Assembly: GCA_022508365.1 (NCBI GenBank)
Contig: JAFLVH010000002.1
Coordinates: forward strand, 1 to 64,000
Direction: 5' to 3'
DNA: 64,000 nt
Source: Clostridiales bacterium
GTDB lineage: Bacteria > Bacillota > Clostridia > Christensenellales > Pumilibacteraceae
The position numbers and the translations under genes are program-made. Below are positions 11,921 to 19,155 of the stretch, piece after piece. Every line of letters begins with the position of its first letter. Positions within the stretch are counted from its first letter, which is position 1. The notes below the pieces were generated by a model. The model saw nothing but the letters and a program-made list of their open reading frames with translations. It searched no databases and was not told the DNA's origin.

Positions 11921-14731
11921 TTATTTCAGTTTGATAGCGCTCAAGATTTTTGTGAGGATTGTGACAACAAAGTAGCTTGCAAGCACCACCGTGGAAACAA
12001 AGCACAGCTGCGTAAAATCCAGTTTGACGATGCCTATGTCCGGCATGAAATATATAAAGCCCAGCGTCAGCGCAATTACGCTTATCATAAGCACCGTGCG
12101 GAATGTGTTGAACGGCTCGCACTGCTTAAACAGCACCATCATGCCCACGCACGTGATTGCAATAACCATCATGGATATAAGCTGCGGCGGATATTTGTCC
12201 GCGCTTGTCATGGGCAGGTTGAAGAACATGTTGTACATATACATAGTCATAACGCCCAAAACAAGCGCCACCCCGCCCGGCACGGCGCGCGATACGACGT
12301 TTGACAGGAATTTACCGCGAATAATGTTTTTGTTGCCCTGCAGCGCCAAGAAGAAGGACGGAATGCCTATAATGCAAACCTCAAGCGCCATAAGATTATT
12401 GGTGGCAAGCGGATACGTCTTTTGCATTGCCAAAAATATTATGGACAACACTATCGACATGAACGTCTTCATAAGAAACATTGCGGACGAAGCCTGAATG
12501 TTGTTGACAACGCGCCGACCTTCCATAACGACGTCGGGCATGGACGTAAAGTCGTTGTTTAAAAGCACCAAGTGGCTGACGTTTCTTGCCGCCTCCGCGC
12601 CGGACGCCATGGCGACCGAACAATCAGCCTCGCGCATAGCGAGTATGTCGTTTACGCCGTCGCCCGTCATTGCCACGGTGTGATTTTTCGCCTTTATCGC
12701 GCCGATTAGCAGCCGCTTTTGCTCGGGCGTTACCCTGCCGAAAACGGTATACTTGTGCGCCGCTTCTATTACGTCCTTGTCGGAAAAGCCTTCAAGCGAC
12801 ACGTACAGCTCGGCGTTTTCCACGCCCACACGCCGCGCGACCTCGGACACCGTCATGGGATTGTCGCCCGAAATGACCTTGATAGCGACGTTGTTCTCCT
12901 TGAACCAGCGGATAGTGTCCACCGCATCCTCTCTGATATGGTCCTCTATAACCAAAAGACACACGGGTCTACGCACTGCCGGCAGCTTTTCGCCGACGAT
13001 ATCCGCAGGCGAATGCGCAAGCACAAGCACCCTAAAGCCGTTTTGCGCGTTTTCCTTGATGATGCGCTCTATGCGAACGCCCATATCCTTCAGCACAAAC
13101 TCGGGCGCGCCAAGCATGTATGTGCCCTCGCCCTCAAACGACGCCGCGGACAGCTTGCGCTGCGAGGAAAACGGCAAGACGGCTTTGGGGTTGAGCGCCT
13201 TGCTGTACCCGAACTTAGCGGCAAGCGCAAGCGCGGTCTGGTTGTTGTCGCCGGTTGCCGTAAGCAGCGAGCCTATAATATCGGCTATGGGATAATGGTT
13301 GTCAAAGCCCTTGATCTCTATTACGTTGTTTACTTCCATCGACCCGTCCGTGATAGTGCCGGTTTTGTCCAAGCACAAAACGTCCACGCGCGCAAGCATC
13401 TCTATACAGTACAAGTCCTGCACCAACGTCTGTTTGCGCGCAAGCCTCAAAACGGATGCGGCAAGCGCAAGCGAAGTCAAAAGGAACATGCCCGACGGTA
13501 TCATGCCTATGACCGAACCCGCCGCGCCGGTGACAATTCTGTTCCAGTCGGAATAGGTTGCCTTCTGTCCCACGGGCACGATGTCGCGATAAGCAATCCA
13601 CACCATTAGCGCGCCTATGGCTATGATAAACGGCGAAAGCACCTTTATTATAAGCTTTATTGAGGACATAAGCTCGCTCTTGGGCTTTTTGTACTTTTTG
13701 GCATGGGAAGTGAGCGTTTCCACATAGTTGGAGGAGCCCACCTTGTCGACGCGAGCCACCACCGATCCGCTGCTTAAAAACGAACCGCTGTACAGCACGT
13801 CGCCCACGCGTTTTTTAACGGGCTCGCTCTCACCGGTCAGCATGGACTCGTTTACTTCGCACTCGCCCTTTACAACAATCGAATCGGTACAAATCTGCTT
13901 GCCCATCTCAAAGCAAATGATATCGTCGAGAACGACGTCGGCAGTGGGTATAACGCACCTTTCGCCCTCTCTTATGACAACCGCGCTCGGCGCAGACACC
14001 AGCGACAGCTTGTCAATCTTCATCTTGGAGCGAATCTCCTGGAATATGCCTATAACGACGTTGGCGGTGATTATGACTATAAAGAACAGCTGCGTAGCGC
14101 CTGCGCCCACCGCCAGCAGCGCCCCGGCAACAATAAACGTCAAAATATTGAAGAACGTGAAAATATTGGATACGAAAATGGAAAGATAGCTCTTGCCGCT
14201 ATTCTTTTTGACAAAGTTGTCATAACCCTGCTCGGAGCGGATTCGCACTATCTCGTTGGACAAGCCCACCTCGGGGTCGGGATTATACCGTTCCGCAGTG
14301 GTCAGATCCACCGTCTTCTTTTTGCGGTGCTTGCCCGACCTGCGCCGCGACGCCGCAGCCTCGTGGCTGAGCATGTTGTTGTCCACGGTCATCGTCTTAT
14401 AGTGATACGACATGACAGGTTCGTCGGTGATGTCGTCGTCAAACACGGAGTTGTCAATTACGGACTGATCTATAGTGGCGCTGCCGGTGTATGCCGCACC
14501 GCTGTATTCCGCGTCCTTGGTTATGATGCGCTGCTCGGGCTTTTTGTCCGGTTTTTTCCGCGCGACAGGGTCGGCAACTGCGCCCACCTCGGAAAGAATC
14601 TCTTCTATCTTTGCCGTCTTGGGCGAGGCGGTCTTAGGCGTAGCCGTTTTGGGCACAGACCCTTCCGACACCGTTTTCGATTTTACGGGCGCCGCTTTGG
14701 CAGGCACCGTTTTCTTACCTTTTTCTTGCAT
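11921..14731 (-). CDS. Cation-translocating P-type ATPase with Lys/Pro/Thr-rich N-terminal extension
   Basis: DKTGTIT, LTGESEPV, TGDGVNDILAMREADCSVAMASG motifs; ~130 aa low-complexity N-terminus. Confidence 0.92.
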   Translation of the reverse strand: MQEKGKKTVPAKAAPVKSKTVSEGSVPKTATPKTASPKTAKIEEILSEVGAVADPVARKKPDKKPEQRIITKDAEYSGAAYTGSATIDQSVIDNSVFDDDITDEPVMSYHYKTMTVDNNMLSHEAAASRRRSGKHRKKKTVDLTTAERYNPDPEVGLSNEIVRIRSEQGYDNFVKKNSGKSYLSIFVSNIFTFFNILTFIVAGALLAVGAGATQLFFIVIITANVVIGIFQEIRSKMKIDKLSLVSAPSAVVIREGERCVIPTADVVLDDIICFEMGKQICTDSIVVKGECEVNESMLTGESEPVKKRVGDVLYSGSFLSSGSVVARVDKVGSSNYVETLTSHAKKYKKPKSELMSSIKLIIKVLSPFIIAIGALMVWIAYRDIVPVGQKATYSDWNRIVTGAAGSVIGMIPSGMFLLTSLALAASVLRLARKQTLVQDLYCIEMLARVDVLCLDKTGTITDGSMEVNNVIEIKGFDNHYPIADIIGSLLTATGDNNQTALALAAKFGYSKALNPKAVLPFSSQRKLSAASFEGEGTYMLGAPEFVLKDMGVRIERIIKENAQNGFRVLVLAHSPADIVGEKLPAVRRPVCLLVIEDHIREDAVDTIRWFKENNVAIKVISGDNPMTVSEVARRVGVENAELYVSLEGFSDKDVIEAAHKYTVFGRVTPEQKRLLIGAIKAKNHTVAMTGDGVNDILAMREADCSVAMASGAEAARNVSHLVLLNNDFTSMPDVVMEGRRVVNNIQASSAMFLMKTFMSIVLSIIFLAMQKTYPLATNNLMALEVCIIGIPSFFLALQGNKNIIRGKFLSNVVSRAVPGGVALVLGVMTMYMYNMFFNLPMTSADKYPPQLISMMVIAITCVGMMVLFKQCEPFNTFRTVLMISVIALTLGFIYFMPDIGIVKLDFTQLCFVSTVVLASYFVVTILTKILSAIKLK

Positions 14732-14784: not shown

Positions 14785-15555
14785 TCAATCATCGGCAAAT
14801 CGCCTAAGCGCAATTTTAAGCACGCCGCGGATTGTCACCTCTAAAATCACGGACAGCACAACCGCCGTTATCACAAACGCCATAAGCATCGCCGGCTGAA
14901 AATACACCTGACTGAGCTTCATAAGCATGCCCAAGCTATCCACCGTTTGCGCAAGGATTTCCGCGCCGATAACCGCCTTTATGTTGTACGAAAACGCCGT
15001 GGCAAGGCTTTCCGGCAGTCCGCCGGCAAGACAAGGCAGATACACCGATTTAAGCATCGTAAATTTTCCGCCGCCGCACAGCACACAAATTTCTTTAAGC
15101 TCGGTCGGAGTAGTGGCAGTCCTTGCTATCGCCGCGGAATACATAATTGGAAAAATCACCAGCACACCCAAAACAACAGGCGTGACGTTGCCGCCCACCG
15201 CAAGGATAAGTATAAGCGTGACCGCCACCGCAGGCAGGGAGCGCATTACGCCGATTATGATATCCGCCACCCTCTTAAACGGCTCAAACGCCGTGGACAG
15301 CAAAAAAGCAACCAAAAAAAGCGCCGTAGCCACTGCAAACCCTACCGTGCTGCGAAGCAAAGTTCCGATTAATCCGTCCCAAAAAAACGGGTTTTGAAAA
15401 ACGTCTTTAAACGCGGAAAAAGTAGCGCCGACGGACGGCACTACAAATTCCGAATCGGTTGCCGCAGACATTGCCCACCATGCGACAAATATAATAGCCA
15501 CGGCGAGCGCAGTGTACAGCAGATTGAATATTATTGTCTTTTTTGCGCTTTTCAC
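14785..15555 (-). CDS. ABC transporter permease (SsuC/ThiX-like)
   Basis: Multi-TM BPD-type permease with ...ATTPTELKEICVLCGGGKFTMLKSVYLPCLAGGLPESLATAFSYNIKAVIGAE...; overlaps upstream SBP gene. Confidence 0.85.
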   Translation of the reverse strand: MKSAKKTIIFNLLYTALAVAIIFVAWWAMSAATDSEFVVPSVGATFSAFKDVFQNPFFWDGLIGTLLRSTVGFAVATALFLVAFLLSTAFEPFKRVADIIIGVMRSLPAVAVTLILILAVGGNVTPVVLGVLVIFPIMYSAAIARTATTPTELKEICVLCGGGKFTMLKSVYLPCLAGGLPESLATAFSYNIKAVIGAEILAQTVDSLGMLMKLSQVYFQPAMLMAFVITAVVLSVILEVTIRGVLKIALRRFADD

Positions 15556-16574
15556 GATTGATAGTAGAATTTGTCGTCGGGCACCTTGTCGAGTACAGGC
15601 GTACCGAGACCGTATGCGGTAAGTCCGCTAAGCTGTGTAAAGTACGCATTGCAACGCGCTTTAGCGTCACTTGCGGAAACATATGATATATTGCAACGCT
15701 GTACAATTTGCGCAGTGAGCGCGGCAAGCGTTGTTTGATTGCCTTCCTTCATGTTGTCCGCAACGGCCTGGCGCGCTTTGTCCGGATTTTGTTCCGCCCA
15801 ACCGTCGCTGTCCTTGACCGCAGTCAAAAATTTATCGACGTCGGCTTTTCTGTTTTTTACGAGCGATCCCTTTGCCACCAAGCATGCTTGAGGAAATTTC
15901 TGTCCGTCAAACGCGGCTTCCCATTGCTGCTGCATATCCATGGATATTTTTCCGCCGGTAGCGTTTATCGCATTTGTCACGGCAGGCTCGCCCAAAAGAA
16001 TGTAATCGAGCTTGTTCTGCTTGTACATGGGTATCAACGCAGTGGCGGCGTTGTAGTAAAGCGCGACCTTACCGTTTACCGCGGTTTCGGAGATTACGCT
16101 GTCTATATTCGCATTCTTTAACAGCATGCGCAACGTGTTGTCCGGAACACTGCCCTGCCCGATCACGCCCAGCCGCTTGCCTTTGAGGTCGGAGAGCGAA
16201 ACGTCCTGCTCGCCGCCCACCATATAAAGATTGCCGTGCGTATTGACGGACAGCATAACTATCTCCACATTGCCGTTATATAATTTAGCCGCAGCGTCAA
16301 TCGGCATTATCGCCATGTCTGCCGTGCCGTTAGCGACAACTCCGCCTATTGTTTCGGACGGAACGACCGTAAAGTCAAAACCGTCATATCCGCTGTCCAT
16401 GACAGATGCTAGCGCAATAGCCGGAGCGCCGTCCGGCATGTATACGTGCACTGTTTCTTTATCGCCGCCTGTCGGGTCGCCCTGTGTTTTGCCGCTTTGT
16501 CCGCTTCCGCAAGCAGTTAGCGGAAATACAAGTGCCAGCGAGACCGCGCAAACTAAATAACCGAGTTTTTTCAT
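15552..16574 (-). CDS. ABC transporter substrate-binding lipoprotein (NMT1/SsuA-like)
   Basis: MKKLGYLVCAVSLALVFPLTACGSGQ lipobox; VHVYMPDGAPAIALASVMDSG...GGVVANGTADMAIMPID. Confidence 0.85.
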   Translation of the reverse strand: MKKLGYLVCAVSLALVFPLTACGSGQSGKTQGDPTGGDKETVHVYMPDGAPAIALASVMDSGYDGFDFTVVPSETIGGVVANGTADMAIMPIDAAAKLYNGNVEIVMLSVNTHGNLYMVGGEQDVSLSDLKGKRLGVIGQGSVPDNTLRMLLKNANIDSVISETAVNGKVALYYNAATALIPMYKQNKLDYILLGEPAVTNAINATGGKISMDMQQQWEAAFDGQKFPQACLVAKGSLVKNRKADVDKFLTAVKDSDGWAEQNPDKARQAVADNMKEGNQTTLAALTAQIVQRCNISYVSASDAKARCNAYFTQLSGLTAYGLGTPVLDKVPDDKFYYQS

Positions 16575-16616: not shown

Positions 16617-16862
16617 TTATCTGAACAAAGCCTTAGCGCTGACGCCGTCAATCTTGCCGAGCTTGCCGGTGAGCGCGTTGATAGCGTTTTGCGGCGCGTC
16701 AAGCACAACGGTAATTGCGCTGACGCCTCGCTCGCGCATAGGAAGCCCCATACGCCCCACAATATAAGTAGCGTAATCGTGCAGTACGGCGTTAACCTCT
16801 TCCACCGCCCTGCCGTCCGATACTATTATGCCGATAAGCGCTATTCTGCAATCGTTTTCCAT
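16617..16862 (-). CDS. TM1266-family iron-only hydrogenase system putative regulator
   Basis: MENDCRIALIGIIVSDGRAVEEVNAVLHDYATYIVGRMGLPMRERGVSAITVVLDAPQNAINALTGKLGKIDGVSAKALF. Confidence 0.85.
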   Translation of the reverse strand: MENDCRIALIGIIVSDGRAVEEVNAVLHDYATYIVGRMGLPMRERGVSAITVVLDAPQNAINALTGKLGKIDGVSAKALFR

Positions 16863-16894
16863 AAAAAAACACCCTCCGATAAAATCGAAAGGCG
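16863..16894 (-). terminator. Intrinsic terminator/SD-sequestering hairpin abutting the TM1266-like start codon
   Basis: Minus RNA CGCCUUUCGAU-UUU-AUCGGAGGGUG-UUUUUUU-AUG; 11-bp stem with three G-U pairs, SD GGAGGG in the 3' arm. Confidence 0.75.
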
Positions 16895-17125
16895 CAAAAA
16901 ACGGCTATGCCGAAAAAGACATTGTCAAGGAGACTTTTGCATATGTGACGCGCCAAGATTGCGTAAGAAATTTGTGCGATACGAAGGACATGCGTTGCGT
17001 TCGTAGCAACGCTACGGGCGCGACACATAGACGCACGTAGCACGCAAATTTATAGCAAGATTGGTGCACGAACTTGTGCAAAGGCTCCAAGCCGTCTTTG
17101 CCGTCAGCGCGCTTTCGACTCAGAC
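16863..17125 (-). ncRNA. Candidate structured leader RNA (possible cis-regulator) of the TM1266-like/ABC transporter genes
   Basis: Promoter upstream (17132-17160), ~150-nt imperfect hairpin (16934-17083), terminator-SD hairpin before ATG. Confidence 0.45.
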
Positions 17126-17131
17126 AATATC

Positions 17132-17160
17132 AGTATATGCTCCGCACACACAATTGTCAA
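17132..17160 (-). promoter_or_regulatory. Promoter TTGACA-17-TATACT for the leader RNA
   Basis: Minus strand TTGACAATTGTGTGTGCGGAGCATATACT. Confidence 0.75.
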
Positions 17161-17175: not shown

Positions 17176-17207
17176 CAAAAACGCCGCCCTATCGGACGAC
17201 GTTTTTT
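17176..17207 (-). terminator. Terminator of the zinc-ribbon membrane protein gene
   Basis: Minus AAAAAACGTCGTCC-gata-GGGCGGCGTTTTTGC. Confidence 0.65.
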
Positions 17208-17228
17208 ACTGTATTGCATTACATTAGT

Positions 17229-19016
17229 TTATTGAAGCTGTTTACCGCACTTCATGCAGAACCGCGCATCCGCACCGTTTTCCATGCCGCACGCAGGGCA
17301 ATACTTCTTTCCGGAAGTGGCCGCAGGCTGTTCGGGCTGCTCCACGGGTTGTTCGGCAGGCTGTTCAACGGGCTGTTCCATAGGCTGCTCCACGGGTTGA
17401 GCCGCAGGCTGTATTTTGTCCGCAACCTTTACGACGTACTTATGCAGCTTGGGAACAAGCGCAAATACAACGTCCGCAATTGCAAACAGCATTGTGAGTA
17501 TGGAGCCAAACACATATCCGCCGCCCATGCCAAAGCCTTTGGGCTTGCCACCGGCAAACGATATAAGCGCGATTAACGCCAGCACGCCAACAGCCGCAGG
17601 AACGAGGAATTCAAACAACCAGGCTATCTTGCCGGGCAACTTTTTGACCTGCATGACGGTAAGCAGCACAAGCGCCGCAATGCACGCAAGCAGCATTATG
17701 AACGCAAAGCCGCCGCCGACCGAGTGTCCTGCCGCATATGCGCCGTACCAACCCTTGACATTATAAATCGCGTTGGATGTCAACAGGAACGTGCAAAGCA
17801 TTATCATTACAAGGTTCGCGATAGAGAAGAACGGGAACATTCCTCCGCGGTTTTGAAGCAGTATAACAAAAATCGTGTAAGCGAGCAATACGATAGAGAA
17901 TATCAGCGAAAGCGTTTGTCCCCAAGTCGGATTGGCGCCGTAAAGATTGTAGATGCCGAGATAGGCTACAAGGAATGCAAACGTGATTATGGCGTCGAGC
18001 ATATGCACGTTCTTATCCTTTTTGAGTATAAAGAACAACACATTTTTTACAAGCAACGCAAGCGGCACAAGGAACGATAAGAACATGAGTATGCCTATCA
18101 TTACGTAACCGCCGTTTGTCCACTCGCCCGCAGTGCCTACCCAGTACATCTTGATGGTGTCGGCATTGCTCAAATATGTAAAGAGCGTTCCGGTTACAGG
18201 CTTGCCGTTGTTCATATACGGGAACGGATTGGGAATGCTGAACGCACCCAGCATAAGGAATAATGAGCTCAAGAACAACAAGGCATTTGCTACAATAAAC
18301 AACGGGAGCTTGCCCTTGTTGTGTATAAACTCGTGGGACTTGTCTAAAGCCACATTCGCCTTTGCCGCAAAAGCCGCTTTCTTTGATGGCGTGGGGGCGG
18401 GCGCAGGCGCAGGCGTTTCTGCCGATTGTTCGACAGGTTGCTCTGCCACAAGCTCTTCTGCGGGTTGTGCCGCAGGCTCTGCCACAGGTTGCTCTGCCAC
18501 AGGCTCATCCACGGGTTGTGCCGCAGGCTCTTCCGCAGGTTGTTCCGCCACAGGCTCAACGGGTTGTTCGACGGGCTCCTCTGCAGGTTGTTCCGCCACA
18601 GGTTCTTCCACGGGCTGTTCCGCCACGGGCTCTGCCTTTTGTTCCTCGGCGGTGTCTTCCGCTTTGACCGCCTTGGTTGCCGGCTTTTTGGTAGTCGGCT
18701 TTTTAGCGGGCGCTTTGGGCTTGTCTGCCGGCGTCTCTTCGGGCGCCTCGGGTTCTGTCGGTTGCTCGTCCGCAGGCTCTTTTGCTGCCGGCTTCTTTGC
18801 CGCGGGCTTCTTTGCGGTAGACTTAGCGCCTGTCGACTTTGCCCCGGCGGACTTTGTTCCGGTAGACTTAGACTTTGTTCCGGTAGACTTTTTAGCCGCA
18901 GGTTTATCGGACTTCGTGCCCTCGAGAGCCTCGGCCATAAGTCTAAGCGCTTCGGCCATTTCGGCGTTGGTTTTAGGCTTGCCTTTGCCGGTCGAAGACT
19001 TCTTGCTTTCTGCCAT
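17229..19016 (-). CDS. Membrane protein with Lys/Ala/Pro/Glu low-complexity repeats and C-terminal zinc ribbon
   Basis: EQPVEEPVAEQPAEEP repeats, ~6 TM helices, C-terminal YCPACGMENGADARFCMKCGKQL; start at MMAESKK because GGAGG lies just upstream. Confidence 0.8.
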   Translation of the reverse strand: MAESKKSSTGKGKPKTNAEMAEALRLMAEALEGTKSDKPAAKKSTGTKSKSTGTKSAGAKSTGAKSTAKKPAAKKPAAKEPADEQPTEPEAPEETPADKPKAPAKKPTTKKPATKAVKAEDTAEEQKAEPVAEQPVEEPVAEQPAEEPVEQPVEPVAEQPAEEPAAQPVDEPVAEQPVAEPAAQPAEELVAEQPVEQSAETPAPAPAPTPSKKAAFAAKANVALDKSHEFIHNKGKLPLFIVANALLFLSSLFLMLGAFSIPNPFPYMNNGKPVTGTLFTYLSNADTIKMYWVGTAGEWTNGGYVMIGILMFLSFLVPLALLVKNVLFFILKKDKNVHMLDAIITFAFLVAYLGIYNLYGANPTWGQTLSLIFSIVLLAYTIFVILLQNRGGMFPFFSIANLVMIMLCTFLLTSNAIYNVKGWYGAYAAGHSVGGGFAFIMLLACIAALVLLTVMQVKKLPGKIAWLFEFLVPAAVGVLALIALISFAGGKPKGFGMGGGYVFGSILTMLFAIADVVFALVPKLHKYVVKVADKIQPAAQPVEQPMEQPVEQPAEQPVEQPEQPAATSGKKYCPACGMENGADARFCMKCGKQLQ

Positions 19017-19155
19017 CATTTCCTCCATTAAAATTAATTCTTGTGCAATTATAGCATATATTCAACAAACAATCAATATGTTTGAACAAATTTTTTCGGC
19101 GAAATTTTATCGTATGAGCGCGTTTACATATGCGCATATGCGCATCAAGCGGAAA

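What the first reader, a model, noticed from the sequence alone, without database searches (positions are those of the whole stretch)
16863..17160. Candidate regulatory leader RNA with a terminator whose 3' arm contains the Shine-Dalgarno of a TM1266-like gene
A promoter (TTGACA-17-TATACT) ~270 nt upstream drives a leader with a long imperfect hairpin, then CGCCUUUCGAU-UUU-AUCGGAGGGUG-UUUUUUU immediately before AUG. The stem hides GGAGGG and ends in a U7 tract, so it could control both transcription and translation. Upstream GGCGC (in UUGGCGCGUC) could pair with GCGCC at the 5' arm as an anti-terminator. Downstream genes are TM1266-like, an ABC SBP and a permease. I do not recognise a known riboswitch class.
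Basis: partly seen in the sequence, partly recalled or inferred. Interest (0 to 1): 0.7.

Follow-up and report, generated by a model that had tools for sequence, protein, structure and literature searches.

The report
New RNA switch before transporter operon
The start of this gut bacterium's transporter operon carries a small, previously uncatalogued RNA switch that can form either a stop signal for transcription or an alternative fold, and in this species a 156-base dispersed repeat has landed inside it.

Summary
The promoter, the leader and a terminator hairpin whose 3' arm holds GGAGGG and runs into U7-AUG are all present. Comparison splits the leader in two. (1) The conserved part is a ~32-nt motif starting at about +1 (window 17125-17094, minus strand) plus the terminator. 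It precedes the TM1266-SBP-permease operon in all 19 same-genus genomes with an intact leader, and recurs in other families of the order (65 of 80 pattern loci lie before TM1266, 5 directly before the SBP). P1 and P2 covary. The terminator's 5' arm pairs alternatively with the motif, better within a species than when swapped between species (p=1e-4). Enforcing the motif's pairs makes the terminator form in all 73 leaders tested. No Rfam family or held paper matches. (2) The "long imperfect hairpin" is a 156-bp genus-restricted dispersed repeat inserted into the leader. Best reading: a new order-restricted attenuator, probably a metabolite-sensing OFF riboswitch for an ABC importer of unknown substrate. 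Sensing through the TM1266 protein is a live rival: TM1266 occurs in every motif-bearing genome checked, even unlinked, and is absent from 22 of 28 genomes with an SBP but no recognised motif.

The parts
17132..17160 (-). Sigma-70-type promoter TTGACA-17-TATACT; predicted start at about 17125
   Evidence: a promoter of the same type precedes the motif in the orthologous leaders aligned
17094..17125 (-). Conserved aptamer-like motif GUCUGAGUCGAAAGCGCGCUGACGGCAAAGAC (P1 GUCU/AGAC, P2 UCG/CGG, P3 AG..CU)
16932..17087 (-). Inserted genus-specific dispersed repeat (imperfect palindrome, 156 bp); not part of the conserved regulator
   Evidence: absent from orthologous leaders
16893..16905 (-). GCCGUUUUUUGCG segment that can pair with GCAAAGACGGC of the motif (extends the alternative, antiterminating fold)
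16869..16895 (-). Intrinsic terminator hairpin GCGCCUUUCGAU-UUU-AUCGGAGGGUGU; 3' arm contains GGAGGG, the SD of TM1266
16863..16869 (-). U7 tract, immediately before AUG
16617..16862 (-). TM1266-family ACT-like putative regulator (81 aa), first gene of the operon
   Evidence: PF21699 1.3e-30, TIGR03959 1.6e-31
15552..16574 (-). ABC substrate-binding lipoprotein, NMT1/SsuA-like
14785..15555 (-). ABC permease (BPD_transp_1)

Best explanation
The leader is a cis-acting transcription attenuator (and SD sequesterer) with a new small aptamer-like domain, controlling a TM1266-ABC importer operon. Without signal, the motif strand (UCGAAAGCGC and, in other clades, GCAAAGG...) pairs with the 5' arm of the terminator, so RNA polymerase reads through and the SD is free. 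When the motif folds (P1-P2-P3), stabilised by its ligand, the terminator 5' arm is released, the terminator forms, and the operon is shut off. The ligand is most likely the imported compound or a product made from it (feedback OFF switch). In this species a 156-bp self-folding dispersed repeat sits in the linker and appears to be tolerated. Shown: conservation, covariation, mutually exclusive pairing in silico, genomic association. Inferred: ligand binding, direction of switching; ligand identity is unknown.
For: Motif and terminator upstream of TM1266 in all 19 genus members with an intact leader. Pattern scan of 85,462 species: 65 of 80 returned loci directly before TM1266, 5 directly before SBP-permease(-ATPase). 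Exact pattern in 18 of 297 genomes of the order (one probably chance), reversed control 0; no hit outside the order in the class sample. Covariation: P2 middle pair GC 37 / CG 31, P1 CG 48 / UA 21, covariation score reached by 0 of 500 shuffles and by no slid structure; further P2 types CGA/UCG, CUA/UAG, UUC/GAG in distant leaders. Terminator with SD and AUG in 66 of 73 leaders. Motif-terminator pairing better within species than swapped: p=1e-4 overall, p=0.007 in each of two groups. Enforcing motif pairs gives P(terminator) about 0.96 on average, terminator over antiterminator in 73 of 73; window leader: P(antiterminator) 0.97 free, P(terminator) 0.97 with motif enforced. The RNA stays with the transporter where TM1266 is elsewhere.
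Against: No ligand is known and no experiment was run. The motif is small (about 30-45 nt) with short helices, so it could be a protein site. Free folding prefers the antiterminator in only 26 of 73 leaders, so the direction of switching rests on co-transcriptional folding order. TM1266 was found in every motif-bearing genome checked, which fits protein sensing too. The swap test does not correct for shared ancestry.
Confidence: 0.55

Rival explanations
1. Protein-sensed attenuator: TM1266, usually the first gene product, binds the motif (alone or with a small ligand in its ACT-like domain) and sets the terminator/antiterminator choice, in cis or in trans.
For: TM1266 is present in every motif-bearing genome checked, including 6 where it is unlinked to the motif, but in only 6 of 28 order genomes with the SBP and no recognised motif (Fisher 0.0007 for 6/6 against 6/28). 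It is usually the first gene behind the motif. The motif is small and rich in conserved internal-loop purines.
Against: The unlinked cases share one gene neighbourhood and are probably close relatives, so the Fisher value overstates the evidence. Unlinked TM1266 genes have no motif of their own, so this is not simple autoregulation. TM1266 also occurs in genomes with no recognised motif. SBP subtype may confound the association.
Confidence: 0.28
2. The conserved part is only a constitutive terminator or leader-processing element with no sensor; conservation of the motif reflects promoter-proximal or RNase requirements.
For: The motif starts at about +1 and abuts the promoter in many species.
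Against: Covariation inside the motif and species-matched pairing with the terminator arm imply a structural switch; the unpaired positions of the motif are nearly invariant.
Confidence: 0.1
3. The regulator is the long hairpin (dispersed repeat) itself, recruited as a leader element in this species.
For: It lies in the leader, folds strongly, and copies are often co-oriented with the upstream gene.
Against: Absent from orthologous leaders that keep the switch; other copies lie at many other genes; the window leader's switch pairing is predicted with or without it.
Confidence: 0.05

Closest known systems
HMP-PP (thiS) riboswitch (PMC6478431)
   Same: Small motif in Bacillota with an intrinsic terminator mutually exclusive with the aptamer fold; NMT1/THI5-type proteins, the fold class of this SBP, include thiamin-precursor binders
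   Different: The thiS aptamer is embedded in the terminator, is an ON switch and associates with thiS/thiazole genes; here the motif lies upstream of the terminator, and Rfam scans gave no match to any riboswitch family
NMT1 motif (xanthine) riboswitch (PMC7373994)
   Same: Named after NMT1-type genes, the fold class of the SBP here
   Different: No Rfam match to any riboswitch family in the window or in orthologous leaders
Protein-responsive attenuators (e.g. TRAP, PyrR, ribosomal protein leaders; own knowledge)
   Same: Small leader site plus terminator/antiterminator upstream of an operon that may encode the binder
   Different: No known RNA-binding family in the operon; TM1266 is ACT-like (own knowledge) of unknown function
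ERIC-type / MITE-like dispersed palindromic repeats (own knowledge)
   Same: The inserted 156-bp element: imperfect palindrome, multicopy, mostly intergenic, genus-restricted
   Different: No Rfam match found; arms vary between copies but remain paired; many copies abut stop codons

Membership tests
Known Rfam cis-regulatory RNA classes | Match at or above a family's gathering score | tested here: not met
   No gathering hit in the window; permissive scans of the leader, of orthologous leaders and of distant leaders gave no match at or above a gathering score
Riboswitch (as a kind) | Conserved structured aptamer in the 5' UTR with covariation | tested here: met
Riboswitch (as a kind) | Expression platform mutually exclusive with the aptamer | tested here: met
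   In silico only:
Riboswitch (as a kind) | Direct binding of a small ligand that changes gene expression | not testable with these tools
   Needs in-line probing, in vitro termination and reporter assays
Protein-responsive leader (TM1266 as binder) | The protein is present wherever the RNA is | tested here: met
   20/20 genus genomes and 8/8 further genomes, including unlinked cases
Protein-responsive leader (TM1266 as binder) | Protein binds the RNA | not testable with these tools
   Needs EMSA or footprinting
Mobile dispersed repeat (the insert) | Multiple copies and an occupied/empty site polymorphism | tested here: met
   11 full copies in own genome; orthologous leaders empty in G019, G005, G007, G004, G009 and separately occupied in G015
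Mobile dispersed repeat (the insert) | Target site duplication / mobilising transposase | tested here: inconclusive
   No clear duplication by eye at the window site; no transposase was searched for

The most novel reading that the evidence does not exclude
TM1266, a long-orphan ACT-like 'iron-only hydrogenase system putative regulator', is the sensor protein of a new RNA attenuator, binding the conserved leader motif in cis or in trans and thereby controlling an importer; the order-wide type-1 and type-2 motifs would be two forms of its RNA target.
Probability: 0.25. Interest if true: 0.8.

Novelty: new member of a known kind. Interest (0 to 1): 0.62.

Why it matters
It adds an uncatalogued, order-wide RNA switch with a defined aptamer-like domain and expression platform in mostly uncultured gut Clostridia, and points to a transporter whose substrate is the obvious ligand to test. 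It also gives the uncharacterised TM1266 family a concrete, testable regulatory context. It shows how a dispersed repeat can sit inside a leader and mislead single-sequence reading.

Tried and rejected
Known riboswitch by Rfam: none. Simple TM1266 autoregulation: unlinked TM1266 genes carry no motif. Ligand from SBP homology: the closest solved relative, 3hn0, has no ligand stated in the outputs; TauA, PqqT, SsuA and THI5 relatives are too distant. Hydrogenase ligand from the TM1266 name: no support found. Literature: no paper with the motif sequence or a TM1266 riboswitch in the held library. Type-2 pattern outside the order: 0 of 288 genomes. First type-2 alignment (A6) contained misplaced rows and was replaced by A7. 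A first count of start codons next to the U tract used too loose a pattern and was replaced.

Full report
Observation. The leader is more stable than dinucleotide shuffles (z = -3.5). The downstream proteins are TM1266 (TIGR03959), an NMT1/SsuA-type binding protein and a permease. A terminator-like pattern alone is not above chance here, so comparison was needed.

The long hairpin is an inserted repeat. A BLASTN search of the own genome with the leader found the leader itself and nine other places, most of them matching its central 130-160 nt. A covariance model (24 of 55 pairs with two-sided compensation) finds 11 full copies in this genome. Copies occur in 18 of the 20 genomes of the genus, in none of the five other genera of the family sampled, and weakly in one further genome of the order. 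Fifty-one copies were examined with plain ORF calls: they lie mostly between genes, 21 start within -2 to +5 nt of the stop codon of a co-oriented upstream gene, and the upstream gene is co-oriented in 40 of 49. Orthologous leaders in G019, G005, G007, G004 and G009 lack it; G015 carries its own copy at a slightly different point.

The conserved leader. All 20 genus genomes have one TM1266 gene. In the 19 with an intact leader the promoter is followed by CUGAACCGAAAG-loop-CUGACGGCAAAG and then, before AUG, a hairpin ending in a purine-rich SD and a U tract. In the window the predicted start is the first G of this motif (about 17125). A model of the motif finds further members in other genera and families of the order, all before TM1266-SBP operons. 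A degenerate pattern over one genome per species (85,462) returned 80 loci: 65 directly upstream of TM1266 and 5 directly upstream of the binding protein without TM1266; the remainder are coding, chance or contig-end cases. Within the order 18 of 297 genomes carry the exact pattern (one probably by chance) and the reversed control none; elsewhere in the class sample there was no hit. Named carriers include Pumilibacter muris and Candidatus Gallimonas species.

Structure. P1, P2 and P3 form in 90.5% of cells; P2's middle pair is GC in 37 and CG in 31 distinct sequences, and a P1 pair is CG in 48 and UA in 21; no shuffle reaches the covariation score and no slid register does. The pattern did not require the middle P2 pair to match (8 mismatched cells were let through), so that pairing is not imposed by the search. 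More distant leaders add P2 types CUA/UAG, CGA/UCG and UUC/GAG. The unpaired positions are nearly invariant.

Expression platform. A terminator was located in 83 of 87 leaders by an automatic scan, some of them misplaced; of the 73 kept, 66 have the purine-rich SD in the 3' arm and AUG right after the U tract. The remaining seven end in a terminator further from the start codon. The terminator's 5' arm can pair with the motif: with its 5' half in the window's genus (CGAAAG/CUUUCG; GAGGCGC/GCGCCUC in G002; CGAAAGAGGC/GCCUCUUUCG in G008) and with its 3' strand in others (GCAAAGGAGACG with CGUCUCCCUUUGC in L117). This pairing is better within a species than after swapping terminators between species (p = 1e-4, and 0.007 within each group). 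Enforcing the motif's own pairs raises the terminator to about 0.96 probability on average, above the antiterminator in all 73. Unconstrained, 26 of 73 prefer the antiterminator; the window leader, analysed separately, also prefers it (0.97). The window leader keeps its alternative pairing with or without the 156-nt insert. The step from these calculations to an OFF switch is inference.

What is sensed. The binding protein has a confident model (pLDDT 88) closest to 3hn0, then TauA, PqqT, SsuA and THI5-type proteins, which does not fix a substrate. In five loci and in G066 the motif sits directly before the transporter while TM1266 lies elsewhere without a motif: the RNA follows the transporter. 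Yet TM1266 is present in all these genomes, and absent from 22 of 28 order genomes that have the binding protein but no recognised motif. This keeps TM1266 as a possible sensor. The unlinked cases are probably close relatives, so the Fisher value of 0.0007 is optimistic, and motif variants may have been missed in the 28.

A second form. In other families the same operon position carries CUGNA-UCGAUGA-loop-UCGGAGA-GUAAG followed by a terminator. It shares the CU-GNA / NNA-AG frame and shows CU/AG to CC/GG and U-A to A-U changes in its helices, so it is probably a distant form of the same RNA; this was judged by eye on 21 aligned sequences and not tested statistically. Its exact pattern is absent from 288 genomes sampled across the class.

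Verdict. A real, uncatalogued cis-regulatory attenuator; a riboswitch is the likeliest reading, a TM1266-dependent leader the main rival. No Rfam family matched and no held paper describes it; unpublished or subscription work could not be checked.

Noticed in passing
window 16932-17087 (-); genus-wide (L001-L020, L206-L245): Genus-restricted dispersed 156-bp imperfect palindrome with GA...TC ends, arms that vary between copies but stay complementary, often abutting the stop codon of a co-oriented upstream gene; two separate insertions in this same leader in different species.
   Followed up: partly
L117, L169, L174, L204 (downstream SBP): The substrate-binding protein appears naturally circularly permuted: the C-terminal half (YPQAVLVAK...FYY) comes first, then the VYAPDGAPALALA half, behind a lipoprotein-like signal.
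   Followed up: no
window 11921-14731 (-): The window operon has no ABC ATPase after the permease (a P-type ATPase gene follows), whereas most related operons have one; the importer may share an ATPase encoded elsewhere.
   Followed up: no
L261-L300 (leaders in other families of the order): A divergent type-2 motif AUCGAUGA...CGGAGAGUAAG occupies the same place before TM1266-SBP operons.
   Followed up: partly
L322, L324-L326, L328, L329: Where TM1266 is unlinked from the transporter it lies between a sigma-factor-like gene and an SDR-like gene followed by a thymidylate-synthase-like gene, a conserved neighbourhood of unknown meaning (names by eye).
   Followed up: no
window 17178-17209 (-): Strong terminator-like hairpin after the 599-aa zinc-ribbon membrane protein gene (17229-19028), just upstream of the leader promoter.
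   Followed up: no
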